This document shows, in pieces, positions 13,544 through 50,040 of a stretch of 64,000 nucleotides of DNA. Source of the stretch: Saccoglossus kowalevskii (taxonomy: Eukaryota > Hemichordata > Enteropneusta > Harrimaniidae). The position numbers and the translations under genes were made by a program. The notes under the pieces were generated by a model. It worked only from the letters and a program-made list of their open reading frames with translations, searched no databases and was not told the origin of the DNA. The stretch lies in contig NW_003109083.1 in NCBI RefSeq assembly GCF_000003605.2, forward strand, positions 528,332 to 592,331, read 5' to 3'. Each line of letters opens with the position of its first letter. Position 1 is the stretch's first letter.

Positions 13544-13767
13544 GACTATGGAGCAACACTCTTCCTATCCCTTCGATGGGATGATCCAAGACTAAGTTTC
13601 ATTGGAATTGAACCAATTGATCTACGCTCTGGGTCGAATTTACTGGATAAAATATGGACACCCGATTTGTATTTCACAAACGTAAAAGAGGCCAAAATAC
13701 ATGAGGTTACTGTGACCAATAAACACGTACGCATTCATCCAGATGGCCATGTGCTCTACGATATGAG
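13544..13767 (+). CDS. Gene A exon homologous to gene B exon 4
   Basis: This 224-nt exon encodes loop D through loop E of the ligand-binding domain. It starts DYGATLFLSLRWDDPRL after TTGTTGTAG and ends GAT ATG AG before gtacag. Same length and phases as gene B exon 4. The loop-D position that is Arg in glycine receptors is Ser here (13568-13570), and the loop-E Ser position is Asp (13760-13762). It also encodes EPIDLRSGS and IWTPDLYF, both standard in anion-channel subunits. Confidence 0.93.
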
Positions 13768-16700
13768 GTACAGTCAACCAAATTAATTTGAATTTCCATA
13801 AACTGCCAACACATTCGTTAAACCGTCTATTATTTTTCATGTTGGAGCGACTAATATGACTATGCATTGAAGATATGAAATTCGTTCTGTAAGTTAGACT
13901 TCTCATAATGACTGCATACTTGTCATAAATTGATTTTCGACGGCTTGCCTGGTATTTATTTAATCTACAATTATTTCTTCTCAGCTGTTAGAATGTACAT
14001 ATGCCAACATGCATTTCTTTTACTTCCTAGAGTGAGCCTTGTACTTATTTGTCATCTATACCTACAGCGATTTCCAATGGATAAGCAAACGTGTGGGATT
14101 GAGCTGGAAAGTTGTAAGTAATTACGTTTCGAAATTTGAAAAGTTTGGATATAATTATATTTGACTGCCCTCAACGATGCAGCGGGTTGTAAGTTATTTA
14201 AGAGCATGTTCAGAGCAATAACCCGAGCATTGACCCCGTTTTAGTCATCGAATATTGAAAATGAACATTGCACAACAAGGATTGAAAATAAAATCTGTTG
14301 TAAGGCGTGTTCATTGACTCACCCAAAGGACGAAATTAGTTTAAATTGTCTAACACTTGTGTAGCTAATGCGTCATTAGGAGGTTAAGCTAATAGGACGT
14401 CGGGGACACATTGACAAACACTACTTGTATACATGTGCAAAACTGATGAGATTAGTCGCTCATGGCGTGAAAGGTTTAAATTAATCCGTTGCGTACTGTA
14501 GTCAATTGAACATACATTCAATAATGCCGGAAATGGAAAGTGTGCATTTAGGACTTTACTGAGTACTAGTACATTTCACTATGGTATCCGATTTTGCCAA
14601 ACAATGTCACGAAATGTAACAAAGGAAATAGTGTAGAATATACTATAACATAGAGCGATTAGTAATTACTAGCAAAGTAATTTACTCATCACCCGGACTT
14701 GAAAAGTATTCTCTCAATTGCAAAGTATTTGTATTTGCTCTATTTACTTAATTGGAATAAAGACCATTGGTGTTCTGTCAATTATTCTGCTACAGACACA
14801 TATATTAAGAAACGTATTACACGGAATATATACCGTAGAAGTTTGCAATATACTCGGGAATCTTTTTCCATGTAAAAGAAAAAGAGGGCGATATTACACT
14901 AGTAACACGCCTGTATGGGTGAGGCGTTTCGTGAGAGTACTCGCATAATAGGTCACGTGTCCACCACCAATGTGTACGATTTTCACCAAAGAAATATGTA
15001 CTTGAAAATATGTAATGTTGATAACGATTCCAGTACCTCGTGTTCAGAACAGTCTTACTTGAGAGACCAAGCTAGACCCACCAAGAGTGGTAATATAATA
15101 CGATCAGCGCTCTTCAGAAATCTGCAGTCAACTGGTGCGTGGTTTTAGTGTACTACTATATGAATTAAATATAATACTCATATTAACTCAGTGTTATCCA
15201 TCTGTTCTCATCACGCGATTATTTACAGTAAAAGTATGATGCACGTAGTGAACTGTTTATTATTCGATCATTGTTCAGTGTGTATGCAACTGCACCGGGT
15301 GGTTCAGCCACGTATGGTTACAATTCACAAAGTGTATATGCATCCAGTATGGAGTCGTACCATTAATTAATCTCTTCTTGTGTTAACTTACATGACTCAA
15401 AGGGCTGTGGTCGTCGCACAGCGCGTGTTCGAATTTTATGTAAATAAAAAATGTATTTTACACGCGTTGTATACGTCGCTATGAGTCCCATGTCGAACAG
15501 GACGCGGCAAGACGACTGCCGCCCTTTAAAATGGTTTCAATTGATACGATGCACTTCAGTAGCGATGTACATTGATGGTATAAGTCACGTGATTTCAGTA
15601 AACAGTTTCAAAGAATTTCAAGATACTCTGAAATGTACATCGGTTTCTTTGTGATATTTGGATAATGATACTACGCCAATTGGCAAACGATACGTATTCG
15701 GTATTTCGATTTAAATTGCTTTCCCGTTATTAGTAAAATAATACCTAATTAAATACTGTTTTGAGCGAGCGCGTTCGTCTACACCTGAACATAGATTGAC
15801 GTCAGTGTGGAGTTCTGTCTACTTTTTAAAACTTGAAACACGGATAATTTTTCGATACTAGGGCAAAGCGTTCTCCGTGAGACGCTCTCCATCACCCTGA
15901 CATGATTAAATTCAACGTCCATATCGGTGTGGAGTAGTAGAATCAATTTCCAATTTATCCAGTATTAGTATCACATCACAAGTATAATACCGCATCTGAT
16001 TTTATCAGGACGATTTAATAAGACAAATTTAAGTCAATGCGGTTATATATAGCTACATAATCTTACTTTCGATAACATCGCGCACGCTTTTTTGCGTCCT
16101 CGCCACTTCAAGTATATTGAATGTATTGACGTCTTTCTCTCTAGAGGGCGTTTTTGTAATCAAATGTGAGTAGACTATACTGATAAGAAACGGATTCACG
16201 AGAAATAATTTATTGCTAATTCTTTATTTTGACAGTTGGTTATACAACAAGGGACATACAACTTGATTGGGATGCCAATTTCTCAGCGATCATCGCCCCC
16301 GAAGTGGTGATGCCCGAATTTACAGTAGGACTCCCTGTCACAAGTAAAGGAATGAGACGGTACCCCTTAGGTAAGAAAAGAAACGTGTGTTAATACGGCA
16401 ACACGACGGGGGGGGGGGCAGAGTGGTGGTGCACACTTGCAACCACAAATTACGCGTGTGATAACGAAATATTATAACAATATTCGAACTTCTTATAATG
16501 GCCGAATATTAGAATTCTATATAAAGCTTGTCACTATCATAAATTAAATTAATAAAAGCAAGTCCGCTTTTATCGCTATTGATGTGTCAAAATATAACGA
16601 TGTCAGATTTGAAAGAAGAGTAAGTCGATACATTGTATTGTTAAAACCGCTGTTACTGTAATCGCACTCATCATAGAAATATATATATTCAATATCATTC

Positions 16701-19700
16701 TGCTCTACTTTAACATCATCGCGTGAGGTTACTGTACTCTATAGCAAATGTTGTTTAAAGTCATGACATTTCAACATTTTTTTTTAATTTGCGGAGTAGC
16801 CATTTTGATGCTCACGGAACCTCTCCCCTCTGTTGGCGTGTAAATAAAGTTATCTTTGGGGCATATGCGACAGCGTTCTATTTTTACATTTCAATTACAC
16901 AGTACGCACGTGTCGACATGATTTCACGACATAAGGTGTAGTACTGATGGCATATGTCCCTTCCTTCGAATATATGTATGATAGTAATTCGCGCCAGCTA
17001 AAATGAGTGCGCCGAGATGGTGCTGTTTCGTTCGGCCTGAGGTTTTTCCTACTAATATCACGAAATGAATTAGGCGAACACGCGTTCTACACGTACATAT
17101 GTCACATGTCCTATAGTATTCTTGTTTATGTCATGTATTTTCTTTATAAAATTCAACAGGATATTACGCCCAGCTTCAATGTCAGTTTTCACTTCACCGA
17201 GAACTCATTTTCTACGTTATGGAGCATTATGTGCCTTCATTTTTATTGGTTATACTCTCATGGGTTTCGTTCTGGTTGAGTGTTGACGCAACACCAGCTA
17301 GGGCAAGTTTGGGTATCACTACAGTTTTAACCTTAACTACGTTGAGTTCCACAGCAAGAACTTCACTGGCAAAAGTCTCTTATACCAAGGTAGAGTAACG
17401 TATACAATGTTCAATATTTTGTGGTTTTCTGTAGAGGTAGATTTAGAGAATGATAATATATCATTAATGATGTTGAAAGCTTTTCAGTTATACTTGCTGT
17501 GCATGGCGCCCTCTTGGGATAACAGTATAGCACACACGCGTTTGTAAATTGCAATCTCTTCATCTCTGGGTGTCTATCGCGGTTATACATATAGAAAATA
17601 ATCTATTTGCGCTGCGATCAATAACAACCACTCTACATCTCAACCACTTGGATTAATATGAGTTTCATTTGTGTGGAATATTGCATTCATTTTGCATATC
17701 GATGCGACCCCCCCCCCCCACAAATGCTGAGATATTTGTGATTCCTATTGAAATGCAATGGTTATTGTTGAGACCGGATTTTTGCAGTACGTCATTTTAG
17801 AAGTGTTAAAGATGGAAATCAATGCATCGCATTCTGATGCTACAATGAATTAATGTGTTGTTTTTTCTCTCGATATTCTGTGGGCGCTTTTTCACAGTGA
17901 CGTTAACCGGAAGAGGTGCTAATTTCTTTATTTCATAAAAAAAAAATGTACGTCACGCGTACAAACAGAAACGTTCTCTACTTGGCGGCAGGCATTGAAT
18001 TCTTAAAATAATTCGATACAACAGTACAAAAAGTTGAGAAATCAGTCCTTGTGGCATCGACTTTGCATGAAATACGTTGACATACTGGCGTGTGAAATGA
18101 AAGTTACAACTCTAAATATCCGTTCAATATATTTTATTTAAACATTCAAGACAAACAATGTACATAGAAATAACATCGATGTGTTTACCTTAGACAGCGC
18201 TAGTTACAACAGTTATAACAGCTGTTTTTATAGTTGCAATGATAATACTAGTATAGTTTGATAGCAACAAATATTCAGCATGTGTTAAAATATATAATTA
18301 ATTTTAGGTTAAAATTACAACAAATAAGTCGGTTATTGGAACACCAGTAATATGGACATTATAGTACACCTATTATCATATGCCAATCATTATACGCCAT
18401 TTTAGAGCGAAAATGAATTTAGTATGTATTATTAATTGGCGATCTTAAAGTTGTTACGGTTCCCGTCAGAAACCATACCAACCCAATTATAAGTGTATTC
18501 AGTCGTTATTTTGACGAGTACAAATTTACCTATTTGACAGGTTAATTTATCTGACATGTTTGTGGCCATTATTTCTGGCTGCTATGCGAGTTAAATTTAT
18601 AATTCAATATTTCTGAACTGATGAATAAAAAGCAAATTATTATGAATATATTTTTATATTCATGTTATTTGTAACATAAGGTGGCTCTTTGCAGATGATT
18701 GCCAAATCAGTAAGTCCACCCGGTCACTTCTTCTTCTTTTTTTAAATATCTACTATAATGTGTTGTTCACCCCGTAGTCGTTCAGGCATTTATTATGGCT
18801 ATGTGTCCATATGTTCCGCGTGTTATTCTGATTCACCAGCTTCTCGGCTTAATTGAATAATAAGAAATTCTGTTGGGAATTGTCCCAAATACTTACGATG
18901 ATATTTCAAATGGAAAATAAAATATAAGTTATTTATCTTTCGCCCGCCAGTTGAGAATAATACAGCCTTAGAGGCTTGCCAAAACTCATTTTATAGATGA
19001 TCTGAAGTGGATAGCAAAATTAAGAGCCATGACATACACTGAATTACGTAGTGGATTTTCTTATCCAAAAAGCTGCTGCGAAAAAAAAACTCTTGGATTT
19101 ACTAACATTTCGTCAACTGTCATTTGACCAAATCCACAAAGCTCGCCTAATCAACTCGCAATTTTGCCATCACACAGAAACCGACCCGTGCATTTGTCAG
19201 AAGAAGGATTGAATTATAGTTGCGTGGAGGGCAGCCTCCTCATTTTTTTTCATCACTTTTGATGCATTTAAATCACTTCTGAATTATTCAAGGCTAAGAT
19301 TACCGCGTTATTAATACTGTATTGGGCACGTTCAACCATCAATGTAGTAATACGATTTGGTGATAAGCTTTGTGTTGTCTTTATTTCAAGAATGCACACT
19401 CATCAATGAAAGCAACTCCTTATTTCATCTCCAATTGTTAAAAAATACACTATTAAATTACTTTCGAGTAAATTGGATTTTCATGATGTTCGTTCTCGTC
19501 GTTAAGATTTATCAAAGTTTAGCCTGATTAGACCATACGGAATCGTATTGTTTACTTTTTTCTTCCCAAAACTCTGATAAAGCTCCCTGGTTGAATGCGA
19601 TTAAACATACGAGACACGACCCAATTAGCCGCTGAGAATAAGATTTTTTCAATTTCCTCGTATTCACGTTATTTGTATATAAGTACGTGAGCTATGGGAT

Positions 19701-21337
19701 TTGACTGGCGGTTTGCTTCCGTATTGCATACGTACAGTCCATAACCCAACCAGACAGGACCTCGTAATGCAATTAATACGTTCTGTTATGCACTGCAGTA
19801 ACGAATAGCGCAAATAGTTAAATTAAATGCAAAGCACACTACACGGCATTTGTCTGAATGTTATTAATGACCAGTGCGACGAAGTGATTCATCTTCTTAA
19901 TTAAATTCTGCCCGCCACATGAGTTTGATATTTCTAAAATACTTTTTTTTACATATTGGCGCTTGAATGATACAGAGGTCAAAGTTCCTTTTTGAAAAAA
20001 TAACAATTTAAATTTGTATTCTGGCATAGATCGATTTGTACTACAGAATCGGTTTATTTATTCATTCATTCATTCTTTTTTAAAATGACATTAAAAACGT
20101 TAAGGTAATTCGTTTTGTGTGCGAGTATGTTGCGTAGATTTCTAAGTACATCGAACTTGGCGGTTAAGTGAAGATGATGTTGCCGGGGAACTGAAAAATG
20201 ATTGTGAAGCAATTATACTCGCACGTGCCTAGTTGCCGATATTCTCACGGTGGCATTTCAAATTTCAAATTCATTGCAGGCACGCGGTCGGGTGTGAACG
20301 TGAGCAAATTATTTTTCCAGACGTATAATTTGTTCTTAGGTTTAATTATTAATATTGCTTGTTTCATTTCTATGCTAGGCAATAGATATATGGATGCTAG
20401 TGTGCTCGTTGTTTGTATTCGCGGCTCTACTGGAGTTTGCCGTAGCCAGCTATCTTCATAAAGCCACGGATACCTGTGATGCTCACAAGGCCAGGAGACG
20501 ACAGGTCAGGGAGACGATGTTTTGGCTAAATGCATATGCAGAGCGCCCTTGCTCGTTTCTACACTGTACCTATTATAAATTCCTTATGCTAAACTTTTTT
20601 TTCAATATCAAGTACCTGTTAGACACAAAGATCATGTTATTTTCTGTATATTGGATTCCCGCTGTGAAGACTTGTGTAAAATAGCTAAAAGCAGCTCTGT
20701 AAAACATATTCACTATAAATCAATGACTACGGGCGTTAATTCTCGAATTCAGTCAGACATGCATTGAATAGCACTTTATTGCAAATGGTGAAAACAAAAT
20801 AGCAAAACAAATCGACCAACACACACAGCACAAAATGTCCGACGGAAAAATATACGCATGGTTAATAACAATTCCCCGGGAGCTATGCAATTATTTTACT
20901 TGTCTTCAAGCACACACGCCCCTTTCTGCGTATCGCACATACATCACAGTCTCCCTCCAAGTAACTGACGTTCATTTCATTCAACCCTATGACATGATTA
21001 GTGTGTAGAAAAGCAGTTAAAATAATTGGGTCTTCCACCTTCTCAAACCTTCTCTTATGCTTCATCCCTACAGAGCCTTAACGTGGACAGAAGGACGCCT
21101 CCCCATGAACACGAACTCTTAGAATTAACCAGTAAATCAGGACTGCAACACCGCAATCATGAGACACGGATTTACATGGAGGATTCTTTCTACGACGAGC
21201 CGCCATCGTTACGAAATAAAGGATATAAACTAATCTCTCGACGAATTGACAGATATTCACGTACTATTTTTCCTGTCACCTTTGCAGCCTTCAATTTTGT
21301 ATATTGGCCTTATTATTTACATAATTATTACGGTTAA
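13544..21337 (+). CDS. Gene A: Cys-loop chloride-channel subunit, 5' end missing
   Basis: Six exons (13544-13767, 14031-14113, 16236-16370, 17160-17389, 20379-20504, 21074-21337) encode about 353 residues of a pentameric ligand-gated anion-channel subunit. Seen in sequence: a WTPDLYF strand; a Cys-loop of 13 residues between cysteines with FPMD; ESFGYTTRD for loop B; M1 with ILSWVSFWL; TPAR before M2, the anion-selectivity signature; M2 SLGITTVLTLTTLSS; M3 WMLVCSLFVFAALLEF; a roughly 75-residue M3-M4 loop; and M4 ending FVYWPYYLHNYYG and stop. The product should sit in the plasma membrane as one fifth of a channel. All introns are GT-AG with phases identical to gene B, 1.8 kb downstream. The signal peptide and first about 73 residues were not found, so the gene is either incomplete at the window edge or 5'-truncated. 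The ligand is unknown. Confidence 0.9.
14031..14113 (+). CDS. Gene A exon homologous to gene B exon 5 (Cys-loop)
   Basis: This 83-nt exon, the classical size for the Cys-loop exon of GABA-A and glycine receptor genes, encodes VSLVLICHLYLQRFPMDKQT, then Cys and the start of the ESF loop-B motif. The acceptor is TTCCTAG and the donor gtaagt. The two cysteines flank 13 residues and form the family's signature disulfide. Confidence 0.95.
14114..16235 (+). other. Gene A intron after the Cys-loop exon
   Basis: A 2.1-kb intron with GT-AG ends. It contains short open frames (for example near 14718-15148 and 15451-15654) with no recognisable motif. No repeat or RNA gene was seen. Confidence 0.8.
16236..16370 (+). 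CDS. Gene A exon homologous to gene B exon 6 (loops B-C)
   Basis: A 135-nt exon encoding GYTTRDIQLDWDANFSAI and then beta-strands up to the loop-C tip (RRYPLG). The acceptor is TTTTGACAG and the donor gtaaga. It is one codon shorter than gene B exon 6 (138 nt), the difference lying in loop C, the ligand-capping loop. No cysteine is present, so the extra disulfide of glycine receptors and GluCl cannot form. Confidence 0.92.
16371..17159 (+). other. Gene A intron with G11 tract
   Basis: A 789-bp intron before the M1-M2 exon. A run of 11 G at 16408-16418 starts 38 bp after the donor. Otherwise it is AT-rich and featureless. Confidence 0.85.
17160..17389 (+). CDS. Gene A exon homologous to gene B exon 7 (M1-M2)
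   Basis: A 230-nt exon encoding the end of loop C (GYYAQLQCQF), M1 and all of M2 up to KVSYTK. Before M2 is DATPARASLG, with Pro at -2', Ala at -1', Arg at 0', Ser at 2', Thr at 6' and Leu at 9', which indicates a chloride pore. The acceptor AATTCAACAG and donor gtagag flank it. It is the best-conserved exon between genes A and B. Confidence 0.95.
17390..20378 (+). other. Gene A intron with C12 tract
   Basis: A 3.0-kb intron after the M1-M2 exon. A run of 12 C at 17708-17719 is complementary to the G11 run in the preceding intron. No other element was recognised. Confidence 0.8.
20379..20504 (+). CDS. Gene A exon homologous to gene B exon 8 (M3)
   Basis: A 126-nt phase-0 exon encoding AIDIWMLVCSLFVFAALLEF and the start of the M3-M4 loop (HKATDTCDAHKARRRQ). 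The acceptor is CTATGCTAG and the donor gtcagg. It is four codons longer than its gene B counterpart; the extra sequence is all on the cytoplasmic side. Confidence 0.92.
20505..21073 (+). other. Gene A last intron
   Basis: A 569-bp GT-AG intron inside the M3-M4 loop region. The loop is the most variable part of the family. Nothing else was seen here. Confidence 0.85.
21074..21337 (+). CDS. Gene A terminal exon (M3-M4 loop and M4)
   Basis: Starts after TCCCTACAG and encodes 87 residues plus a TAA stop. It carries the cytoplasmic loop, a basic stretch (ISRRIDRYSRT), then M4 (IFPVTFAAFNFVYWPYYL) and HNYYG at the extreme C terminus. Gene B shares this M4 but has 16 further residues. In glycine and GABA-A receptors the basic stretch just before M4 belongs to the cytoplasmic MA helix. 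Confidence 0.92.
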   Translation, partial: SLNVDRRTPPHEHELLELTSKSGLQHRNHETRIYMEDSFYDEPPSLRNKGYKLISRRIDRYSRTIFPVTFAAFNFVYWPYYLHNYYG

Positions 21338-22454
21338 TATTATCAACGATTATATGATTCGTCTTTTTGTTTTACATTGGTAACGTAGTATTTGAATAAT
21401 TCATCCGAATATTAATCTATGGTTTAAATGTATGCACACGCGGTATGTTTACATGTTGGCTGGCAACACACTGGCACGTGATAGCCAGCTGAACTATTAT
21501 AATATCATCCAATCGCAGCGCTATACCAAGAGGAGGTTAATTAAGCGGAACACACTGCATTTTGGAAATACATTTTTACTTAAATAACGATCAACGTCAG
21601 CGTTATTACTTGCTCACTGTGCTCTTGTAGTCTTCCACGATGGATATAGAGATCCAGACTACCGACTGCGACTGAGGAATTTTACCCTGTATCCGTAGAC
21701 GTGAATGCGTGATACACAAAGCCGATTAACCACTGGGTTTCTATACACTGTCCTTACACGGAATGTGTTTTATCACGTCGGTTGATCACGGCGTGTTGAC
21801 GCTATTGATTGCTATCGCACTATACCTGTTCTCATCGACCGACGTCTTGATTTGAGGCCATACCTTTCCGTTGGAAACACTTCACTAGCCACGTTGTCAC
21901 GGTAACATCCAGAGAAGCTGCTTAATTTAGGCATAAAAGAGAGAAGATCAGAACGTTCATCATCAGCATAGGATTTCAATTCAACAATACACTGGCAATC
22001 ATGAGTGCATCAAGATGCAACTTTTCCTACTAAACAGAGACGTCACGTAAATATCAACGTCAATCACATATTATTTGTGTTCCATTGTTGTCGGGTTTGT
22101 CGACTCCTCGACGTGCTAGATTAATTCCGACGTTTCAAGATCATTTACAATAATTACACTTACTTATAACAGAGTAGGAAAACGTATTTATAGTATCTAT
22201 TAATTTAATGGACAGTTTTCACTGACACCTCGTGCACGCTTTCCAGCTACTATTGAATTTAGATGTACGAGTACGGACAAAATCACTTGCTAATTATCGG
22301 TAACAATGTCGCCGTATATTAGACTAACAAAGTTCCTGTTGATTGCTCGCTTTAAAAAACCCACTAACGACGATAATCGCCCGATAGCGTGTTAGGTGAC
22401 GACGTCTTCGTATATACGATAACGACACAAAGGGGTCAGGTGTTTAAAGAAACT

Positions 22455-22464
22455 GTCACGTGAC
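22455..22464. promoter_or_regulatory. Palindromic E-box GTCACGTGAC upstream of gene B
   Basis: A perfect 10-bp palindrome containing CACGTG, the core bound by bHLH-zipper factors such as USF, Myc/Max and MITF/TFE. It lies about 655 bp before the gene B ATG in the 1.8-kb gap between the receptor genes. The link to gene B is inferred from position only. Confidence 0.3.
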
Positions 22465-22722
22465 CGACTAGAGATTGGGAAGAAGAGACATTCTTTAAGA
22501 GAAGAAGCGCCCATCCACGTAGGTAGTTTTGCCATCATTTAGTACTTAAAAATCCTTTATCGCCAATGTGTTTTTCGTGACCAATCAATGCTCTGTATTC
22601 AGAAAATATGACATATACGATTAGATATTATTCCGTCTTAGTATGGCAAAGATTAATTTGGCCAGATAAATCTCTCAGTAACAGCTGCGATGAGACTGGG
22701 GAAGCTAATTCGTTGGGTAATG

Positions 22723-22728
22723 AATAAA
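22723..22728 (+). terminator. Possible gene A poly(A) signal
   Basis: First AATAAA downstream of the gene A stop, 1.39 kb away in AT-moderate DNA. It lies only about 170 bp before the proposed gene B leader donor, so its assignment is uncertain. A shorter 3' UTR using a variant signal is equally possible. Confidence 0.25.
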
Positions 22729-22899
22729 GTATTAAAATGCTTTGTGTGGCGTAGAAATAGAGTTGGTTTAATCAAAGAACTTTACAAGGAATTAGATGCA
22801 TGAATCGACGACAGAGGTAATGGTGAAATCAGTCGTCCAATAAACCTGGCGTAATTTATTGTTCACGCAATGGCTTAGTGTATGTGGAAGAGGGAGCAG

Positions 22900-23041
22900 G
22901 TAAGGTGATTTCTGCCGGGTGACACATTACATAGCGGAACGATGTACGCTCTTACCCGCCAATGTACTCCCCATACTCCTTGATTGGTCCAGCTGTGTAC
23001 GACGTCAGAAATGTTTCTAAACGTACTCTCCTACATTGCAG
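22900..23041 (+). other. Putative gene B 5'-UTR intron
   Basis: A strong donor (GGGAGCAG|gtaagg at 22899/22900) and a good acceptor (CTCTCCTACATTGCAG ending at 23041) define a 142-bp intron just upstream of the gene B start codon. If real, gene B has a non-coding first exon ending at 22899 and its coding first exon begins at 23042. No transcript evidence is available here. Confidence 0.35.
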
Positions 23042-23118: not shown

Positions 23119-23198
23119 ATGTCGCCACAGAATATCATTTTACACGGTGTCATTATTGCTTTTTATATATTGGGAACGTCAGCGACGGGCAACATCAG
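23119..23198 (+). CDS. Gene B exon 1, signal peptide
   Basis: Encodes MSPQNIILHGVIIAFYILGT then SATGNI and two bases of an Arg codon. The hydrophobic core VIIAFYIL followed by GTSA is a good signal peptide, with cleavage likely after Ala22. The ATG has A at -3 and an in-frame TGA lies 18 bp upstream (23098-23100), so this is the first possible start. Donor gtaggt. The AG end joins exon 2's G to give Arg27, keeping the frame. Confidence 0.82.
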
Positions 23199-41100: not shown

Positions 41101-44100
41101 TAAGAAACAAATGATTGCTGCAATGTTTCAATCATCTCGCTAGGTTGAGTTTAGATTAAACCCAAGTTTCATATGGCGGGGATGTTTATTGCTGTCCGTC
41201 AACACTGTCGTCATGTTTTCAAAGAAAACTCCATTTTAATAAATTTGATCAGTAGTTCAGTTGCAGAATGGGCAGCTTTGTAAACGTTTGATCAAATCTT
41301 GACTGTTTTATTGATTATATTTTGTGTGTATCGGTTTATAAAATTAAATAGAAGGGTTTGGGAGATGGGAATAGTGCGAATATAAATCACTGGTTCATCT
41401 CGATCATTTCTATTTTGTTATTATGCTATCCTTCGACTAAATAATTACAATTCATCACTTATATCTAATGCAAAGTCTTAATTGAACTAAATTGCTATAG
41501 TATCATTTGGATGCATAGTAGCATCTGAAAAACGTTTGGATGGACCAAATGTTTTTCAGATACACGCTGTCTCGTGAAGGTGGAAATTACAACACTCTAT
41601 ATGATTTACCTACGCACTGGTTTATGCATTGCGCTTGATGATGACAAGAGATATAGATGAAACCGAGTCATGCAGAATCTTATTTAGTTTCCCCCCAGCT
41701 GCAGCTAACTATTCCCTAACTTGATTTAGAGTCGTTTAATATATTGAAGATATACATAAATGACGGGCTGTGCAATTCATTTATTCCATCGCCCACGAGA
41801 CTGTCTATTAGCAAGTAATCGACGCGACGACGAGGGACCTTCAAATAAATTTGTTAATGTTTTTACTACAGGCTGGTTCATCAGAATTTTGATGAGCTAT
41901 ATAATCAACAACGATATAAGGGATGTTATTGCTATAGGCAGATGCTATAAGACACTTTGTTTTTAAGTGTTATGTCTTCTATAATTCTGTCTTAACAGGA
42001 TGTTGTCATGAGATATTTTTACAATAGATGCCTGATCTATGTTATGCTGTGACATCATTTATTCTATTACTATTATTTATGTTTGTACGTAAACTTGGAA
42101 AAACATGTTCTCTCGTTTTCAACATGAATTTTCTTCTCTAGGCTAGAGTCAACATAATTACTTTTACAAACGTACTCTGATACAATGTCTATAATTCGCA
42201 ATGTACATTATGGATGTCAATATTATGTGAGGAGAAGCTTCCTAATGAAATACATAGGTCATACTTCTTACTCAATGAAAATGTTGTTTTGCATATTTAA
42301 ATATCAAGCACCAGTTACGCGTAAAATTGACAAGTTGCTGTCATTTTAATTTGCCTCGCCTCAAAACATGTCGTTCAGATAGTTCAAACTGGCTGTTAAG
42401 AGTCTCTTTTGAACTAATATACAGTAAACGTTTTTATGCATCTCACGTTTCATAGGAAGTTCTGATTTAATTGCATTGTCCATATACCTGCTTTGCAGTG
42501 TCGCCATTACCTTGCGAATCGGAATAATTCAATGGCTCACATGTTTAATGGATATCGGATTTCGTGTTGACAGTGAGTTGTTTATTTTGACAGGTTTCTT
42601 CGACCAGTTAGAATGTCGATTCTCTCTTCACCGTGAACTAATCTTCTACGTTATGGAACATTACGCACCGTCATTTTTACTCGTTATACTGTCATGGGTG
42701 TCTTTTTGGCTAAGTGTGGAAGCTACTCCTGCGAGGGCAAGTCTGGGAATAACAACAGCTCTAACATTAACTACATTAAGCTCGTCAGCCAGGGCACAGA
42801 TGGCGCGAGTATCATACACAAAGGTGAGTCATATTGTAATATATAATTACGTCACTATGATTATGCCGCTATATGGGTCGCTGAACTGTCCCCGCGTATG
42901 TAAATAGGTAGAACTTTCCACTCGTGTCGGATTATTTGTCACGTACTGTATATAAACATGTTACAAAAATAGTATGCAGAACTACACAAAATGTTTATCA
43001 ATCATGTTACAGGCATGTAAATGCATTCGTGTAATCCTCAAATGTCGTATTCAAATGTTGTAATCTTTCGGCAATTCATATACTTATAAAAACTGCAAAA
43101 ACTTTGCGGCGCATATGTTACTTTACATGTTAATTCCTCACTTGCTTTTTTGATCTGCCTGACATAATCCTCTCTAAGGAAAACGGACCAAACCCCCAAA
43201 ATGCAATTACGACACGACGCTTTCTAATTAAATGGATTTAATCATTTGTCAACTTACATTATAATCGATAATGATTTAATATAACTTTTGAATGTCGAGA
43301 TAAATTGAATTAATATAACGTAGTGGCGGTTAGAGTTAACAGATCCCCAGAGCAATATAATTGGTTTATCAAAGGTAACATTGTCCTACTGGCGATCGCA
43401 ATAGTCGTGTTTGATTGTTTTAATTTACTGTCTTAATTACAGAGTCGTGTTGCTAATTTATCAACTCCGGCATGCAAATAAATAAACCTCGCAAAAACAT
43501 GAGAAGTATCATTATGCAAGACATAAAAGTACATATATCACACACGTCCAACTCGCTCACTTCAGAACGCTGTCATTTATGTGTTTCTATTCACTTGGCG
43601 TTATTTAGCACCACTTCGATGTATCACACGACGCATCTCCTGTCACTGGAAGCCCATAGTTACACTTTACACTATACAAATCCCTCTACTATGTAAAGCT
43701 CGATAATTTAATAAGATGACACAATTCAAGACCCAGTGTTCTGACTTGCAGACTTTCCTCACAAACCAGACACATGGCACTGTAGTTAATCTAATAAAGA
43801 TCCGTTTCCAGAGAGTATACAATTGTATTGTTGGTTAACTAAGTGTAATTCCGGCCCTTCTCAGTTTGGAAAATTGATCTATTAATTTAATTCGCGTGGC
43901 ATGTAATAATACGTTGGTGTTTATATTTTAGAATAAAACATTATAGCTCTAAAATGTCAAGATTGTTCTTGGTATAATCTTGATATATTAAGGGACTGCT
44001 AGTCTTACACATGTAGCAAGACACTATGTAGATTTACCGACTATCTGACACGTGTGCAGTGGGTAAATCACGAACAACAGCTATTACTGATCTAATACCA

Positions 44101-47100
44101 CTCAGACTGGAAATAGAATGAAGCTCATAATAGGTCGACATTGTGAGTGTGAATAATGTCATACTGTCTCGCAACAGCACGTGGTGGATATTTACCGTCT
44201 AACGGTTTCTGCTATAATTGTTCGGTTAGTACAGAACATATGTTTGTATTAAACAGCAGTAGTCCGGCCTTGCCGTGTTCATTGCAATCATTATGTTGTT
44301 ACACACGGGCGGGTTAAGCATTCATGAACTAATTGACACTCAAGATAGGATAATGAGTTTCGAGTCGGGAACCTGATGGGAAAAGAACATGTCATTGGCC
44401 CACACCGCGGAGTAGGAATCATATCTCTAACAATATCACGTTGTAGGAAATAGTCTATGAGTTTGCAAAAATGCCTTCACGCCCGATCACAGCGAGGGAG
44501 ATACATATATACAGCAAAACACTACGGGATTAAAAACAACGATACATGTCAATTTGCCCTGACACGACTCACCACGTACTGTTCAAGGACCGCCGTACTT
44601 ATCATCGTGTCATAATTACTGCACGGTGATATGAATAACCAGTCAGCTAGATTTAGTTATTGTTATAAATATAGGAGCATGGTGTACGCCACAGTGGATT
44701 ATTTTCAAATATCGTGATATTTACACAGCCTCAAAGTGCATGACCCCCGTTCATCCAAAAAAGTTCGAAGTTCACCATACGGTAAATACCAACTAACATG
44801 TAGATCAAGAAATGAGATGAAATACATCGTGCTATAATTCGTTAATGCACTTATTACTGACTGCCACGCCGTATACCATTTGCACAATTCATTTAAATTC
44901 AGTAATTAATTTGAAGAAAAAAAACGCGCAAAGGAAATTCAATAACGGATTATAAAATGTGAAATGTCATTGTTTTCCGTATCAAGATGGGTGTCAATTC
45001 GGCCTGGATAACTCCAATAGCGCAGTTGCCCCCTCCTCAAAACATACACTCGCCTTTTCAGTATCATTTTTCCAAAAAAGGAAATATATTCGGTCGACAT
45101 TTTAATTCGTGACGTACTAATACGTATTGTAAATCTGCTTAACAAAGCGATACTGATATATTTTTAAGTCGCAATGAGAACATTATAAAATAAACAAGGA
45201 CTATTCATAAACAGATTTTTTACATTAGTACTGCTGTTACTGGGGATTTTTGATCATGTGTTATCTCTTTCTTCTCGATCGATGAACAATATATTCATGT
45301 AAATATAATTCAAAATTCCCCAGTGTTATTTTCACCGCCGCGTTACAAGTTCCGTGTGTCCTATTCACGTACAGATAACAACTATGAAATCGCATATGAT
45401 TTGCTATTTATAAAAAAAATGACTGACATAGGCGTATTTCTGTTTTGTTACAGGCTATAGACATTTGGATGCTGGTATGTTTGATATTCGTCTTCGCTGC
45501 ATTATTGGAGTTTGCCGTAGCCAGTTATCTTCACAAGAAGTCAGAGACGATGTATTACAATTCCTCGGTAAAACAATTAATTTGCTCATATATAAATAAT
45601 TACAGGCGCTTCTAGAGTCGGTTTCCTGGCTTGTGACCACTCTCGGTGTTATAGAATAATAACTAAAGTCATTTCAGTTCTAATGAATTTTTGATAAACT
45701 GAAATGTTAAATCTATTTCGTCATATTTACTGTGTGACCATTGCTGCGCTTAGCCGGAACATGGCATGTTGACTGAATATCAGTTTTGTGGTTACACGCT
45801 GTCGGCGTTGTTGTATTGATGTGACTGCTGTGAATATAATCCGTGTAATAGGTTAAGGGCCGTGTGCAATGCATGCATGTCGTATCTCTATAGGTTTGAA
45901 ACTGTCCTCTCTCTTTTATACGTTATTTGTATTTGGGAGTACGTGGTTTATTCCCAGTCCCTCATAGATCAACATCCCCAATATAAGTGTATTGCTGTAT
46001 TCCATATTGAATAACACAAAGTGTGTTATGGCGTCTGTTGAATTAGAAACGATGACTGAAATGATAAAATTGGGATAAATGTGGGGCTTATTGTCAATAA
46101 GAAAAAAACGTGTCACAGCTTATGTATTATCTTTTGTGTGTGCAATGTAAAGCCAGCTGATGGTTCTACTCTGAGAGCGATAACAACGTTGTAAGTTGAG
46201 CGACTGCAAAATACCACTTTATAGGGTGTCTCAAAAGTTTTGGTCCCTGAAGAAGTTCGCAAGAGTTCTTCTCAGGTATTGAAACTTTTCGGACACTCGT
46301 ATAACCGTTCATCGGTTCGCTGCGCATGCGTTGATCGACCCGACAAGACAGTGATTCTCAGATGTTTATTTGATATCAACCGAGGCAGTTGAATACAACC
46401 GAAGACATTGACATATATTTATTTGATTGATGTATATATATATAAATATTATCTGTTTGTTGTTGAGTATTTACTCATGTATGATTTTGCAACATGAGTG
46501 TTATTACCCCGTGTTGGTACCATAGAGACAACGTTGAAGACGCGTGTACCTATTTATACCATGTGAAATAGTGGTTGGCAGTTTTACGCTTATCAGGAAG
46601 TCGAGTAATTTCGAAGTTCATTAATACGGAAACCATGACTACATAGCCATTATTAACTTTCATATATTCACCTCTCGCGAAACTGAATAACGATACTAAT
46701 AATGATGAGCACTTACCAACCTTCCTCGCTTGTATCTAGTATGTACGTAATGTTTTAATGAAGCTAATATTTTAAAAGTCTTGTAAGGTAAAGTTAATAA
46801 CACACTTTTACACTTACATGATACTGCACGATTCTCCCAAGGCTCGTTTCCAAGTTGTTCACCCAAGAATTATAAACACGTTCGAAGGCTTGTTTTCATC
46901 TCTTTGTGTGTACTGACCCACGTGATTTGAAGTTGACCTAGATTGACCTCAATCAAGTTGCTCGACTTGCCAATCGATGATCGCCACTGCCAACACAACT
47001 TGAAATGAATGGAATTGCACTTTATTTTTTCATTATAAATTCCTTTATAGCTACTATCGATAACAATAATACGGATACCCACACATTTGACGTTGAATCG

Positions 47101-50040
47101 ATGCAATTGAAAATGGCCAGAGGCGTCATCGTGTGATGAAAGATACGTTCAGAAATTGTGCATGCATTTAATACATACACGTAATAACAACGAGTCATTT
47201 TCCCTGCTCCGCGATTCCGGTTATTAGACGAGAAACACAAATGCTGTTTATTTTACGCTAGTTTATTTATAAAATTCATAAAAAAAAACTGTGACAATGA
47301 ATCCCATTATCGCTTCACAACAGATGTACATAGCGAATGGGTTCAAAGAGAAATTGCATTCAATTATAAAGAGAAACATATCATTTCAGCCAAAATACGT
47401 GTATTGTAATTTTTTCATTATCATGGCTTGCGTGACAACCGAAAAATATGTGATTGTAATTGTAATCCCGACAGACGTTTTCTACCGGTCTTAGAAAATT
47501 AACAAAACGCATCAATTATTTTAACTTGAATAGAAAAATAAAAATATAATTATTATTCATTACTCATTGAATAGCCCTAATAACTGGGTGACATAGATAT
47601 GCACAGACATAGACTTAAATCCTATATGAGAAATGGTTACCTGCGGCAATTGCGCTAACAAGAATAAGCATAAAGCATAAAAGTTGGACACTTCTGTCAT
47701 TAGCATTGGAATGAGATGAGATATGCCTCCGACAGTCAGGTCATACACTATTTAAGGACATTGACTAAGATTGCTGGAAAGTTTGGAAACATTAACTGTC
47801 ATCCCCATTTACTAACATCGCTCGACAGAAGTTATTAGATTTACACTATGCCAGTAATTAGCCAATTTCACGCGTCATAGTTCCCACTCTCCCATTATTT
47901 ATTGTATGATTCAATATGTGATATAACTGATGCTACTGTCGTCCTTTTAGCTATATGTTATAACCTCACTTTTTATGATGTCATTGAATTATTATTCAAC
48001 AAAAACATTTCACGGCAATTTATTTTTTTATATTTAAACCAAATTATAGAGTAATAAATAGGAGAAAATGCCGTCCAATTGCTTGCAGAAGATATACGGA
48101 ATTTGTATGTCACCATGTTTTATCATAACGGCTATTCGGACATTATTTCACGTTCACGATCTTAGCATTGCCATATGGATGCCATTCCATCGACTAGATC
48201 TGTGTTGCTACACTGTGAGTTATCATGGGCATCACTGTGGGTTATCATGGAGATGGGATGACGTTCCTTCTAGAGTAATGTTATTGGTAGGATGCCATTG
48301 CACTCTATGTTAATACAGCAATGTCAATGCCAACATGCATCTTGACGCGGCTGCTAGGTCGGTGCCATATCTCCAGTGCCAAGCCAAATACATCAATTCA
48401 ATCTTCACAGTGTACAATGCTAGTGCATATTTACTATGTTATTTCAATTTCATCTTAGTGCACGGTTACACGTGCAAATAAATTCCAAACCATTGTGTTT
48501 TAACACAGCTGATCTGGTCCAAATTTACATTTTAGTAACACAACTAGATTTACATCGTTTAACTCGGTAAACATGGTACCAAAGATACGTGCCTATTAAA
48601 AATACTATGTCAATTTCATCTTAGTGTATTAAGACGTCGACTAATAATCTTGTCTGAAGTTAGCATGGCCAGGGTAGGTTCCACGCCGGCTGTTTTAACA
48701 CGGCTGGATTGGTGCATTTTATATTTGGTAACACTGCTAGATGTTATCTTTTTATTCGATTAGAGGTATACCAGTACTACGTGCATAGTAACATGATTAG
48801 ATACAGCCAGATAAATATTCTGTAAAGCGTTGACATGGCTGAACAACCTCATTATTTCGCGTGTTAACGTGGTTATACCAATGCCACCTCATTTATAAGG
48901 CCAGATAAATGGCACTTCAATGTGTGGTTACGCCGTTATAATATTGGTTTCATCTTAGTCTATGTTATATGGGTTGAATTCATGTATACGTTAACACGGC
49001 TAAATCGATGTCATTTCTATGCGCGCTGTCTTGTCTGGAGTTACGACATCCCACTGTGCCGACAAGACTAGCTTTGTGTCTCCCTATATTTTGCTAAGAA
49101 GATAATTGTGAAATTTAGTATATCCCTCGAATACATTCATGCTACTTCAGTGATCACTATTAGATCTGTTCTTACATGCCTATTCAAAATATCACAAATG
49201 ATGGCGCCAACTAACTAAAATGTTGTTTTGTCATGCTCCCCCAGCCCAGTGGCCCGCAGATTCGACTCGTTTAAAATTCGATTTAGTTCTTTGGTCTAAC
49301 ATGTATATGAAATGTACTTTGGCGGGATTATACTTCCGTGCATGTACACTATCATGGGGGCTTTATGTTCTTTGTTGCACAAAAGAACGGAATAAATCTA
49401 TTTTATTATTGTTAATTGTGACGCATGCGCAGTAAAAGTCGGTCGTTCGTTTAAACTATCGTTTCAGATCCATATGTTGCCAGTATTTTAACCCAGTACA
49501 ATGCACACTTCTATTGCATAAACTGTTAAAGTGATATCCTTGCTGGCGACAAAATGTTAGGGCCGGGTCAGAGAGATATATTTTTTACCAACCGATGATA
49601 GGGTTAAAAACAGAAGTGACGTAAAACATTACTTATCGCCCTCAGACAAGTCTTGATTAGTAACGCCTATTTTATCTCTAGTTGATTTAGATATGGTATT
49701 CTAACAGTTACATTTCTTGTTTCAGGATTATTACTCGGAGAGTAGTATACCATTGCGTCGCCTTGATTTAAAAGACTACACACCAGTAAGATCAGACATA
49801 CTGCACCACCAAGAACTACGGATTAACATCGAAGACGGGAGGCCGCCAGAAACACCGAGGATTGCCCGAAAAAGAAGTTTCAGGAGACTCTCTAGGACGA
49901 TAGATAAATACTCCAGGGGATTGTTCCCCTTAGCTTTCTTGTTCTTTAATTCTGTCTACTGGCCCTTTTATCTGCACAATTACTACGGGACTGACCCGAT
50001 GGAAAAGTATTATGCGGAGATGGCTGCAAATGACAGCTAG
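23119..50040 (+). CDS. Gene B: Cys-loop chloride-channel subunit, complete
   Basis: Nine exons (23119-23198, 26237-26307, 26544-26611, 27632-27855, 32768-32850, 40808-40945, 42594-42823, 45454-45567, 49726-50040) total 1323 nt, or 440 residues. Domains: signal peptide about 1-22; ligand-binding domain to about 239 with a conserved DPEYDKELRPN start, GPPVN, WDDPR, WTPDLYF, Cys-loop C155-C169 and ESFGYTTRD (174-182); M1 about 240-262; M2 about 267-289 preceded by PAR; M3 about 302-324; cytoplasmic loop about 325-400; M4 about 401-419; 21-residue tail. Possible N-glycosylation at N55 and N93. Length and layout fit GABA-A/glycine receptor subunits, which form pentameric chloride channels in the plasma membrane. 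Ligand not identifiable; loop D Ser82 and loop E Asp146 differ from glycine and GABA receptors. A tandem paralogue (gene A) lies just upstream. Confidence 0.94.
23199..26236 (+). other. Gene B intron 1
   Basis: A 3.0-kb intron between the signal-peptide exon and the N-terminal helix exon. Contains an inverted repeat at 24371-24430 and several short open frames without recognised motifs. Confidence 0.8.
24371..24430. repeat. 13-bp perfect inverted repeat
   Basis: TTATAGAGTGCCA (24371-24383) and its exact complement TGGCACTCTATAA (24418-24430), separated by 34 bp. It could be a fold-back relic or an RNA stem. No clear target-site duplication was seen. Confidence 0.8.
26237..26307 (+). CDS. Gene B exon 2, N-terminal helix
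   Basis: A 71-nt exon encoding residues 27-50, with YAVIKDPEYDKELRPNAE. The xxYDxxLRPN pattern is the hallmark of the N-terminal helix/loop in GABA-A and glycine receptor subunits (compare YDARIRPNFKGPPVN of glycine receptors). The acceptor is TTCGTTACAG and the donor gtaagt. Confidence 0.92.
26544..26611 (+). CDS. Gene B exon 3, beta-1 strand
   Basis: A 68-nt exon, the canonical size of this exon in GABA-A receptor genes. It encodes GPPVNISVFVYFTSIHSLSE then VSM. N55-I-S is a possible glycosylation site. The acceptor is ATCACGTAG and the donor gtgagt; the phase joins exon 2 (phase 1) and exon 4 (phase 0). Confidence 0.92.
26612..27631 (+). other. Gene B intron 3
   Basis: A 1.0-kb intron. 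Its last 69 bp form an open frame with a hydrophobic pyrimidine-coded stretch that reads into exon 4 (from an ATG at 27563); this is most simply the polypyrimidine tract of the acceptor. Confidence 0.75.
27632..27855 (+). CDS. Gene B exon 4, loops D, A and E
   Basis: A 224-nt exon encoding residues 74-147: DYGATLFLSLQWDDPRF, then N93-G-T, EPIDLRSGSE, IWTPDLYF, KHIRINPDG and LYDMR. Ser82 (27656-27658) replaces the loop-D Arg of glycine receptors, and Asp146 (27848-27850) replaces the loop-E Ser. Acceptor TTTGTACACAG, donor gtatga. Same length as its gene A partner. Confidence 0.95.
29701..29732 (+). repeat. 32-bp direct repeat, copy 1
   Basis: Identical to 32652-32683; the first 20 bases are TTAATATTGCATATTACGTG. 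Both copies lie in the same intron, 2.95 kb apart, in the same orientation. The flanks are not alike. Confidence 0.9.
32652..32683 (+). repeat. 32-bp direct repeat, copy 2
   Basis: Exact match to 29701-29732. It lies 84 bp upstream of gene B exon 5, close to where branch points and splicing enhancers occur. Confidence 0.9.
32768..32850 (+). CDS. Gene B exon 5, Cys-loop
   Basis: An 83-nt exon encoding VSLVLICHLYLHRFPMDKQT, Cys and GLQIES. Cys155 and Cys169 form the signature disulfide over FPMD. Acceptor GCTTTCACAG, donor gtaagt. Same length and phases as in gene A. Confidence 0.95.
34375..34401. repeat. Perfect 12-bp hairpin
   Basis: TGATTAAATCTG, loop TAG, then CAGATTTAATCA. A perfect stem of 12 bp with a 3-nt loop in intron 5 of gene B. 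AT-rich, so possibly chance or a small fold-back relic. Confidence 0.85.
40483..40753 (+). repeat. 30-bp minisatellite, nine units, beside gene B exon 6
   Basis: Nine tandem units, each reading approximately TATTTCTAAAATGTCCCTCT then TATAGCGAGG. One unit is 31 bp. Seven of nine units carry TATAG or TACAG after a pyrimidine run and a CTAAA-like stretch, so each looks like a branch point plus 3' splice site; two read TAACG. The array ends 54 bp before the true acceptor of exon 6. Confidence 0.95.
40808..40945 (+). CDS. Gene B exon 6, loops B and C
   Basis: A 138-nt exon (canonical length in this family) encoding GYTTRDMQLDWNDDF and then VVFKKTLNYPTVG at loop C. The donor is GTCG|gtgggt at 40946. 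A site three bases upstream would lack GT, so this end is well fixed by phase. Loop C has Tyr and Thr at places used by glycine receptors but no cysteines. A nine-copy minisatellite lies 55 bp upstream. Confidence 0.93.
40946..42593 (+). other. Gene B intron 6
   Basis: A 1.6-kb intron between the loop-C and M1-M2 exons, containing the hairpin at 41521-41563. Otherwise nothing recognised. Confidence 0.8.
41521..41563. repeat. 19-bp near-perfect hairpin in intron 6
   Basis: GCATCTGAAAAACGTTTGG and CCAAATGTTTTTCAGATAC pair at 17 of 19 positions around an ATGGA loop. The stem is somewhat short for an animal microRNA precursor; a small fold-back element is an alternative. Confidence 0.8.
42594..42823 (+). 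CDS. Gene B exon 7, M1 and M2
   Basis: A 230-nt exon encoding GFFDQLECRF, M1 (FLLVILSWVSFWL), EATPAR and M2 (ASLGITTALTLTTLSSSARA), ending RVSYTK. Pro267/Ala268/Arg269 form the anion filter; Thr275 at 6' and Leu278 at 9' line the pore. Acceptor TTTTGACAG, donor gtgagt. Confidence 0.95.
42824..45453 (+). other. Gene B intron 7
   Basis: A 2.6-kb intron between the M1-M2 and M3 exons. Short open frames are present (for example 43472-43696) without recognisable features. Confidence 0.8.
45454..45567 (+). CDS. Gene B exon 8, M3
   Basis: A 114-nt phase-0 exon encoding AIDIWMLVCLIFVFAALLEF and the start of the cytoplasmic loop (YLHKKSETMYYNSS). Acceptor TTTTGTTACAG, donor gtaaaa. Leu305 occupies the site that is Ala288 in the human glycine receptor alpha-1. 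Confidence 0.93.
46224..46299. mobile_element. MITE-like 76-bp hairpin flanked by TA
   Basis: Starts GGGTGTCTCAAAAGTTTTGG and ends GAAACTTTTCGGACACTCG. GTGTC pairs with GACAC, AAAAGTTT with AAACTTTT, and CCTGAAGAA with TTCTTCTCAGG (two-base bulge) around a short centre, so nearly the whole element folds on itself. It is bounded by TA at 46222-46223 and 46300-46301, the target-site duplication expected for mariner/Tc1-type elements. No coding capacity; a non-autonomous relic. Confidence 0.6.
48310..49060. repeat. Degenerate tandem repeat field
   Basis: Repeated variants of GTTTTAACACGGCTGGATTGG followed by GTGCCATTT- and CATCTTAGTGTA-like pieces, at irregular spacing of about 50-130 bp. Examples are near 48500, 48690, 48860 and 48990. 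Strongly diverged, suggesting an old array. Confidence 0.55.
49726..50040 (+). CDS. Gene B exon 9, cytoplasmic loop, M4 and tail
   Basis: Starts after TCTTGTTTCAG and encodes 104 residues plus TAG. It has a 64-residue loop portion with basic RIARKRSFRRLSRTIDKY before M4 (GLFPLAFLFFNSVYWPFYL) and an extracellular tail ending MEKYYAEMAANDS. The basic run matches the pre-M4 region in gene A. The tail after HNYYG is absent from gene A. Confidence 0.95.
   Translation, partial: DYYSESSIPLRRLDLKDYTPVRSDILHHQELRINIEDGRPPETPRIARKRSFRRLSRTIDKYSRGLFPLAFLFFNSVYWPFYLHNYYGTDPMEKYYAEMAANDS

What the first reader, a model, noticed from the sequence alone, without database searches (positions are those of the whole stretch)
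13544..50040. Paired orphan chloride channels that have lost the amino-acid-binding arginine
In glycine receptors loop D reads FLRQQW, and its Arg (R65 of human alpha-1; equivalent Arg in GABA-rho and GluCl) holds the ligand's carboxylate. Both genes here read FLSLxW, so that Arg is Ser (13568-13570 and 27656-27658). In loop E the family's LYSIR Ser is Asp in both genes (LYDMR; 13760-13762 and 27848-27850). The aromatic loop-B ESFGY is kept. Losing a positive charge and gaining a negative one in the binding site suggests a ligand without a carboxylate, perhaps an amine such as histamine or another biogenic amine. The pore remains clearly anionic. Shared by both copies, so it predates the duplication.
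Basis: partly seen in the sequence, partly recalled or inferred. Interest (0 to 1): 0.75.

Follow-up and report, generated by a model that had tools for sequence, protein, structure and literature searches.

The report
Acorn-worm chloride channels with inverted pocket
Two neighbouring acorn-worm genes belong to a branch of the glycine-receptor family, so far found only in acorn worms, whose ligand pocket has lost the side chains that normally grip an amino acid's acid group and gained an acidic one instead, so they probably answer to a different, positively charged signal such as an amine; this has yet to be tested.

Summary
The window is Saccoglossus kowalevskii; gene B is 100% identical to a protein named 'glycine receptor subunit alpha-1-like'. 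Both genes read FLSLxW in loop D and LYDMR in loop E at the stated codons. The change defines an acorn-worm clade of 19 database proteins from three species (support 100/99 with the trait columns removed). None of the 19 has the loop-D Arg, all 19 carry Asp for loop-E Ser129, and at the aligned loop-C Thr204 all 19 have Leu, Val, Met or Phe (gene B keeps a Thr one residue earlier). The 28 relatives compared have R, S and T there. Aromatic box, loop-B Glu, Cys-loop and anionic PAR pore stay. In the worm's genome Asp129 occurs in 9 of 40 homologous exons read, eight on one contig. All three known carboxylate contacts are thus replaced, one of them on the face that GABA-A beta subunits keep. Best reading: an anion channel gated by a cationic ligand without a carboxylate, most likely an amine, identity unknown. 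Loss of the Arg alone has published precedent (HisCl1, MOD-1, LGC-55, ACC-1). Function, expression and pocket geometry are untested.

The parts
13544..13767 (+). Gene A exon 4 (glycine-receptor numbering): loops D, A and E; FLSLRW ... LYDMR
13568..13570 (+). Gene A loop D Ser at the Arg65 position
13760..13762 (+). Gene A loop E Asp at the Ser129 position
14031..14113 (+). Gene A exon 5: Cys-loop, first part of loop B
16236..16370 (+). Gene A exon 6: rest of loop B, loop F, start of loop C
17160..17389 (+). Gene A exon 7: end of loop C, M1, M2 with PAR motif
20379..20504 (+). Gene A exon 8: M3
21074..21337 (+). Gene A exon 9: M3-M4 loop, M4, stop
   Evidence: the database model P0011 leaves this exon before M4
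23119..23199 (+). Gene B exon 1: first 27 residues (N-terminus, likely signal peptide)
   Evidence: tblastn of P0001; exact 3' border not checked
26237..26307 (+). Gene B exon 2
26544..26611 (+). Gene B exon 3: loop G region
27632..27855 (+). Gene B exon 4: loops D, A and E; FLSLQW ... LYDMR
27656..27658 (+). Gene B loop D Ser at the Arg65 position
27848..27850 (+). Gene B loop E Asp at the Ser129 position
32768..32850 (+). Gene B exon 5: Cys-loop, first part of loop B
40808..40945 (+). Gene B exon 6: rest of loop B, loop F, start of loop C
42594..42823 (+). Gene B exon 7: end of loop C, M1, M2 with PAR motif
45454..45567 (+). Gene B exon 8: M3
49726..50040 (+). Gene B exon 9: M3-M4 loop, M4, stop

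Best explanation
Both genes encode subunits of Cys-loop channels with an anion-type pore, descended from a glycine-receptor-like ancestor in acorn worms (shown by sequence and tree). Their orthosteric site keeps the cation-holding half (aromatic box, loop-B Glu157), but the three side chains that hold an amino acid's carboxylate in glycine receptors (Arg65, Ser129, Thr204) are replaced, Ser129 by an invariant Asp (shown by alignment). Inferred: the natural agonist is a cation without a carboxylate, most likely a biogenic amine or a choline- or polyamine-like ligand. Its ammonium would sit in the aromatic box, and its far end (hydroxyl, imidazole or second nitrogen) would meet Asp129. Binding opens a chloride pore.
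For: Arg65 0 of 19 against 28 of 28, Ser129 replaced by Asp 19 of 19 against 0 of 28, Thr204 0 of 19 against 28 of 28. In published simulations of the glycine receptor the carboxylate is held by T204, S129 and R65 (PMC5377815, passages); [quoted passage not shown] Retained: Tyr202 19 of 19, aromatic 207 19 of 19, Phe159 18 of 19, Glu157 18 of 19 (the one miss in each is P0016, whose model appears to lack the Cys-loop exon); position 99 is Tyr in 19 of 19. Asp129 is one of 23 invariant columns of 200 in the extracellular domain, while 65 and 204 have become variable: this suggests an active role for the Asp and relaxation at the other two. Acidic residues also rise at 105, 186 and 208. PAR in 19 of 19. 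Precedent: loop-D Arg absent from HisCl1, ACC-1, MOD-1 and LGC-55 (PMC4006026, passages). S. kowalevskii has serotonin neurons and expresses histidine decarboxylase (PMC10508912, passages).
Against: No functional, expression or docking data. Acids also fall elsewhere: at 49, 77 and 114, and Glu103, at the back of the site, is kept in 3 of 19 against 21 of 28, so the net charge of the site is not established. Basic residues rise at 144, 149, 164 and 197, and an inserted Arg is in 17 of 19. Arg119 (18 of 19, the other Lys) and Arg131 (19 of 19) remain. Position 65 is Ser in 10 but Val, Ile or Pro in 9, not uniformly polar as reported for amine-gated channels. Nine of 19, gene B among them, have one extra residue in loop C; gene B has Thr and P0003 Ser in it, so for these the loss of the loop-C hydroxyl depends on the alignment. 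Whether Asp129 faces the ligand or pairs with Arg131 on the same strand cannot be decided without a structure. No known amine-gated channel was compared at position 129.
Confidence: 0.5

Rival explanations
1. They are auxiliary subunits of heteromers, like GABA-A beta: the complementary face is blank because a partner subunit with Arg65 and Ser129 supplies it, and the ligand is still an amino acid.
For: GABA-A beta subunits lack the Arg and contribute only the principal face (PMC4006026, passages); the five beta-type proteins in the census have Gln65 and Gly129. Ordinary receptors exist in the same genome (25 of 31 non-clade exons read keep Arg65). Gene B's loop C still holds a Thr, one residue off.
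Against: The principal face is changed too: aligned Thr204 is gone in 19 of 19, whereas all five beta-type proteins read STGSY in loop C. A merely blank face would not need an invariant Asp.
Confidence: 0.2
2. The channels are gated or tuned by protons (pHCl-like): Asp129 and clade-specific His residues act as titratable groups.
For: His at position 49 in 14 of 18 clade rows with a residue there and at 117 in 10 of 19, plus extra acids. pH-gated anion channels exist in invertebrates (stated in PMC4006026).
Against: The aromatic box and Glu157 are kept, which suggests an organic cation. The His residues are not invariant.
Confidence: 0.12
3. The ligand is still a zwitterion or anion, bound in another way: flipped, with its ammonium at Asp129, or with its carboxylate taken by a basic residue elsewhere (Arg119, Arg131, the inserted Arg, Lys/Arg197).
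For: Glutamate receptors moved their second Arg between faces (PMC4338433). Arg119 and Arg131 are kept; an inserted Arg is in 17 of 19 and Lys or Arg at 197 in 12 of 19.
Against: No clade Arg at the loop-A position 101 or the loop-G position 46. Arg131 lies about 8 angstrom from glycine and pairs with Glu103 in the human receptor (PMC5377815). The inserted Arg is in the beta2-beta3 stretch, remote from the pocket in related structures (recalled, not checked).
Confidence: 0.12
4. Relaxed or lost function: the pocket is decaying and the channels no longer bind a ligand.
For: A broken partial copy of one clade gene lies nearby. Positions 65 and 204 vary.
Against: Open frames with intact splice sites; orthologues of gene B in two further genera at 77 and 73% identity; Asp129, Tyr202 and Tyr99 in 19 of 19, PAR in 19 of 19, Cys-loop in 18 of 19.
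Confidence: 0.06

Closest known systems
Glycine receptor alpha subunits (GLRA)
   Same: Best sequence match among solved structures (E 2.4e-93) and best fold match; Cys-loop, PAR pore, Glu157, aromatic box, Tyr202; the tree places the clade inside a glycine-receptor group (98/90). That human GLRA1 shares the exon sizes 224, 83 and 138 is recalled.
   Different: Arg65, Ser129 and aligned Thr204 all replaced; the second, glycine-receptor-type cysteine pair 198/209 absent in 18 of 19 (kept only in P0015).
Biogenic-amine- and acetylcholine-gated anion channels of protostomes (HisCl1, MOD-1, LGC-55, ACC-1)
   Same: Anion channels without the loop-D Arg (PMC4006026, passages).
   Different: No sequence of these was retrieved here. 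The acorn-worm clade sits among deuterostome glycine receptors in a tree that does not contain them, so a likeness would probably be convergent. Asp at the loop-E position was not checked in them.
GABA-A beta subunits
   Same: Loop-D Arg absent (Gln).
   Different: Loop E has Gly, not Asp; loop-C Thr kept in five of five.
Other S. kowalevskii exons with His, Lys, Thr or Tyr at position 65 (C451, C3285, C1000)
   Same: Loop-D Arg lost (6 of 31 non-clade exons read).
   Different: Loop E keeps Ser (five of six) or Gly (one); other contigs.

Membership tests
Glycine receptor (glycine-gated) | Descent from the glycine-receptor grade | tested here: met
   Clade inside a 47-row group with hemichordate, amphioxus and vertebrate glycine receptors, 98/90; clade itself 100/99 (52 of 271 fetched proteins used, no protostome amine- or glutamate-gated channel among them)
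Glycine receptor (glycine-gated) | Cys-loop and anionic PAR motif | tested here: met
   Cys-loop 18 of 19 (P0016 model appears to lack the exon), PAR 19 of 19
Glycine receptor (glycine-gated) | Aromatic box and loop-B Glu157 | tested here: met
   Aromatic at 63 in 17, 99 in 19, 159 in 18, 202 in 19, 207 in 19; Glu157 in 18; each of 19
Glycine receptor (glycine-gated) | Carboxylate contacts Arg65, Ser129, Thr204 | tested here: not met
   0 of 19 for each in the alignment, 28 of 28 in relatives; gene B has a Thr one residue before position 204
Glycine receptor (glycine-gated) | Second cysteine pair 198/209 | tested here: not met
   Absent in both window genes and in 18 of 19; present in P0015; present in 19 of 28 relatives
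Glycine receptor (glycine-gated) | Opens to glycine | not testable with these tools
   Needs electrophysiology
Amine-gated anion channel (functional class) | No loop-D Arg, anionic pore | tested here: met
   class feature from PMC4006026 (passages)
Amine-gated anion channel (functional class) | Polar residue in place of the loop-D Arg | tested here: inconclusive
   Ser in 10 of 19 (both window genes), Val, Ile or Pro in 9
Amine-gated anion channel (functional class) | Gated by an amine | not testable with these tools
   Needs electrophysiology
Protostome HisCl/MOD-1/LGC clades | Phylogenetic membership | not tested
   No named member was retrieved, so the tree does not contain them
GABA-A beta-type principal-only subunit | Loop-C Thr kept while Arg is lost | tested here: not met
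   Thr204 0 of 19 against STGSY in five of five beta-type proteins; gene B's shifted Thr noted
Glutamate-gated chloride channel | Second Arg in loop G or loop A | tested here: not met
   Position 46: Thr or Ser in 18 rows, gap in 1; position 101: Val, Thr, Pro or Ala

The most novel reading that the evidence does not exclude
Acorn worms carry a lineage-specific family of chloride channels (at least nine genes in S. kowalevskii, eight on one contig) that arose from glycine receptors by replacing the carboxylate-holding residues of the pocket with an acidic one and now respond to a cationic amine: an independent, deuterostome origin of amine-gated inhibitory channels.
Probability: 0.42. Interest if true: 0.75.

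Novelty: new variant of a known kind. Interest (0 to 1): 0.52.

Why it matters
If true, fast inhibition by an amine evolved in the deuterostome line from glycine receptors, a natural experiment in changing agonist class with the three contact positions known. It would also mean that the database label 'glycine receptor subunit alpha-like' misleads about function for a sizeable set of hemichordate genes. Because the earliest branch (P0015) keeps the glycine-receptor cysteine pair while already lacking Arg65, Ser129 and Thr204, the order of steps can be tested by mutation.

Tried and rejected
Considered and dropped: (1) that the pair is a two-gene novelty: the tree and genome search show a larger radiation. 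(2) That gene A is a truncated pseudogene: exons 2 and 3 were found upstream of the window; its exon 1 was not sought further. (3) Gene-A position-67 Arg (FLSLRW) as a replacement Arg: Arg occurs there in only 3 of 19 clade rows and in 7 of 28 ordinary relatives. (4) That Asp129 arose to pair with Arg131 after loss of Glu103: P0014, P0015 and P0017, on early branches, keep Glu103 and already have Asp129. An Asp129-Arg131 contact itself remains possible. (5) GABA-A-beta-like subunit: kept as a rival.

Led nowhere: the all-against-all ORF comparison was swamped by the 35-base repeat and was redone without it; a paper search for R65/S129/D97/R119 gave nothing; Rfam gave no match; AlphaFold2 on 17 of the 19 clade sequences gave only a middling model (mean pLDDT 67.1, pTM 0.55), so pocket geometry was not read from it. 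Amine-gated channel sequences of protostomes were in no result that I saw, so loop E could not be compared. All three protein searches are spent, and each lists only its best 120 (of 1483, 2254 and 3233 hits), so a weaker clade member elsewhere, in echinoderms for instance, could have been missed. Genome searches scored only part of their candidates (150 of 247, 96 of 241), so gene counts are lower bounds, and near-identical exons were not merged.

Full report
What is there. The window is from the acorn worm Saccoglossus kowalevskii: the spliced gene B is 100% identical to P0001, 'glycine receptor subunit alpha-1-like [Saccoglossus kowalevskii]', and the window maps to contig C346:528332-592331 of the held genome. 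Two glycine-receptor-like genes lie on the + strand. Gene B has nine exons, 23119-50040. Gene A has exons 4-9 in the window (13544-21337); its exons 2 and 3 lie about 14-18 kb before the window start, beyond a stretch that reads N, and exon 1 was not found. Exons 4 to 6 have 224, 83 and 135 (A) or 138 (B) bases with AG/GT borders. A and B share 232 of 349 aligned residues. Pfam finds the ligand-binding and membrane domains of Cys-loop channels in both.

The observation. The spliced loop B is ESFGY in both. In glycine-receptor numbering (mapped on fish protein P0023) both genes have Ser65 and Asp129.

How general it is. My three searches listed 271 different proteins (the best 120 of 1483, 2254 and 3233 hits). 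Of these, 246 have Arg65 and Ser129, 19 have no Arg65 and Asp129, five GABA-A beta-type proteins have Gln and Gly, and one amphioxus protein has Arg and Gly. The 19 are hemichordate by their database names: 7 from S. kowalevskii, 4 from Ptychodera flava, 8 from Glandiceps talaboti. In a profile search built from 17 of them, 18 of the 19 score 530 bits or more; the next proteins score 464 or less, except a long fish GABA rho protein (P0121, 537 bits, which has Arg65 and Ser129). The nineteenth, P0016 (470 bits), stands barely above the rest and has a faulty model. With columns 65, 129 and 196-212 removed, 52 of the 271 proteins gave a tree in which the 19 are one side of a branch at 100/99, inside a group with hemichordate, amphioxus and vertebrate glycine receptors at 98/90. 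The rows P0184, P0212, P0121 and P0016 have long branches and are unsure. Gene B groups with P0002 and P0003 from the other two genera; gene A with P0009 of Glandiceps.

In the genome. I read 40 exon-4 regions of S. kowalevskii, chosen from the listed part; they include the 39 matches of gene B listed that cover this exon. Both searches scored only part of their candidates, so counts are lower bounds. Nine of the 40 have Asp129, none with Arg65: eight on C346 (119.8 kb on the minus strand; 407.1, 441.3, 457.6, 541.9 = A, 556.0 = B and 627.4 kb on the plus strand; 711.9 kb on the minus strand) and one on C3381. The other 31 have Ser (26), Gly (3), Asn (1) or Thr (1); 25 of the 31 keep Arg65. 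The loop-D peptides of two of the nine (C346:441.3 kb and C3381) are in none of the 271 proteins; the other seven match the seven S. kowalevskii proteins one to one.

The pocket. I compared 19 clade rows with 28 ordinary relatives (18 hemichordate, 3 amphioxus, 7 vertebrate); the tree rows P0223, P0184, P0186, P0188 and P0121 were left out. Arg65: 0 against 28. Ser129: 0 against 28 (Asp 19 against 0). Thr204: 0 against 28 (Leu 11, Val 4, Met 3, Phe 1). Kept: Tyr202 19 of 19, aromatic 207 19 of 19, Glu157 18 of 19, Phe159 18 of 19 (P0016 is the exception), and an aromatic at 63 in 17 of 19. Position 99 is Tyr in 19 of 19, against Phe in 25 of 28. Acids rise at 105 (16 of 19 against 2 of 28), 186 (15 against 0) and 208 (13 against 0), but fall at 49 (0 of 18 against 19), 77 (0 against 21) and 114 (2 against 25). 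Glu103 is kept in 3 of 19 against 21 of 28. Basic residues rise at 144, 149, 164 and 197, and a clade-specific two-residue insertion brings an Arg in 17 of 19. Asp129 is among 23 invariant columns of 200; 65 and 204 are of middling variability. Nine of the 19 (P0001-P0008, P0016) have one extra residue in loop C; there gene B has YPTVG and P0003 YPSVG, so in these the true partner of Thr204 is uncertain. Gene A reads YPLG and has no hydroxyl there.

Why it points to another ligand. Papers seen as passages or parts: glycine's carboxylate is held by Thr204, Ser129 and Arg65 (PMC5377815); three aromatics, a Thr, an Arg and a Ser are named the amino-acid agonist motif, and glutamate receptors add an Arg in loop G or A (PMC4338433, parts 1 and 2 of 5). 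The clade has replaced all three carboxylate ligands and shows no Arg at either of the two alternative sites. The loop-D Arg is absent from HisCl1, ACC-1, MOD-1 and LGC-55, and from GABA-A beta, which serves only as principal face (PMC4006026). Thr204 is on the principal face and is also replaced, while five of five beta-type proteins keep STGSY, so the beta-like reading fits less well. Arg119 and Arg131 are also in ordinary receptors; Arg131 lies about 8 angstrom from glycine. That Arg119 pairs with Asp97 is recalled, not looked up.

Order of events. P0015, sister to the other 18 (100/99), keeps Cys198, Cys209 and Glu103 but already has Ile65, Leu204 and Asp129. So the ligand contacts appear to have changed first, and the glycine-receptor cysteine pair was lost later. 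In glycine receptor alpha1, mutating Cys198 abolishes surface expression and mutating Cys209 abolishes glycine currents (an older study as cited in PMC4795631, passage). The second cysteine pair is itself not universal: 19 of the 28 relatives have it.

What is not shown. No ligand, no expression, no assembly. The predicted structure has the right fold (the best PDB matches are glycine receptors; GABA receptors follow closely) but is middling and a monomer. Amines are available to the animal: serotonin neurons, and histidine decarboxylase expression in the posterior proboscis and the cords, which the authors say may be partly non-neuronal (PMC10508912, passages). That makes amines possible, not chosen.

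Is it in print? Searches for hemichordate + glycine receptor (6 papers listed), Saccoglossus + Cys-loop (5 listed) and histamine-gated + chloride channel + deuterostome (5 listed) show no paper whose title or abstract start treats this family. Of these I read passages of one (PMC2822779), which reports only distantly related sequences in sea urchin. The library lacks most subscription journals.

Verdict. Observation confirmed and extended; interpretation partly supported; a new variant of a known kind, of good interest because it is directly testable in oocytes.

Noticed in passing
window 2-3820: About 105 copies of a 35-base tandem repeat (AGTTACATACTGGGCACATAGTATCACACTATTAC) fill the start of the window.
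   Followed up: no
window 40484-40760: Nine copies of a 30-base tandem repeat ending about 48 bases before the acceptor of gene B exon 6.
   Followed up: no
L030, L033, L045, L047 (C451), L044 (C3285) and L028 (C1000): Other glycine-receptor-like exons of the same genome have His (3), Lys, Tyr or Thr at the Arg65 position while keeping Ser (5) or Gly (1) at 129: apparently separate losses of the loop-D Arg, four of them on contig C451.
   Followed up: partly
L060-L061 (about C346:648.9-653.4 kb, minus strand): A partial, broken copy like the clade gene P0016 (83-95% identity over pieces) with M1-M4-loop pieces; looks like a pseudogene or an assembly duplicate.
   Followed up: no
window 21259-21695: The database model of gene A (P0011) leaves exon 9 near 21259 and joins a short downstream piece at 21630-21695, so it lacks M4; the window has an uninterrupted M4 reading to a stop at 21337.
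   Followed up: partly
clade alignment, position 212: A clade-specific Cys at position 212 (17 of 19), just after loop C, where the glycine-receptor second cysteine pair has been lost in 18 of 19; no partner identified.
   Followed up: no
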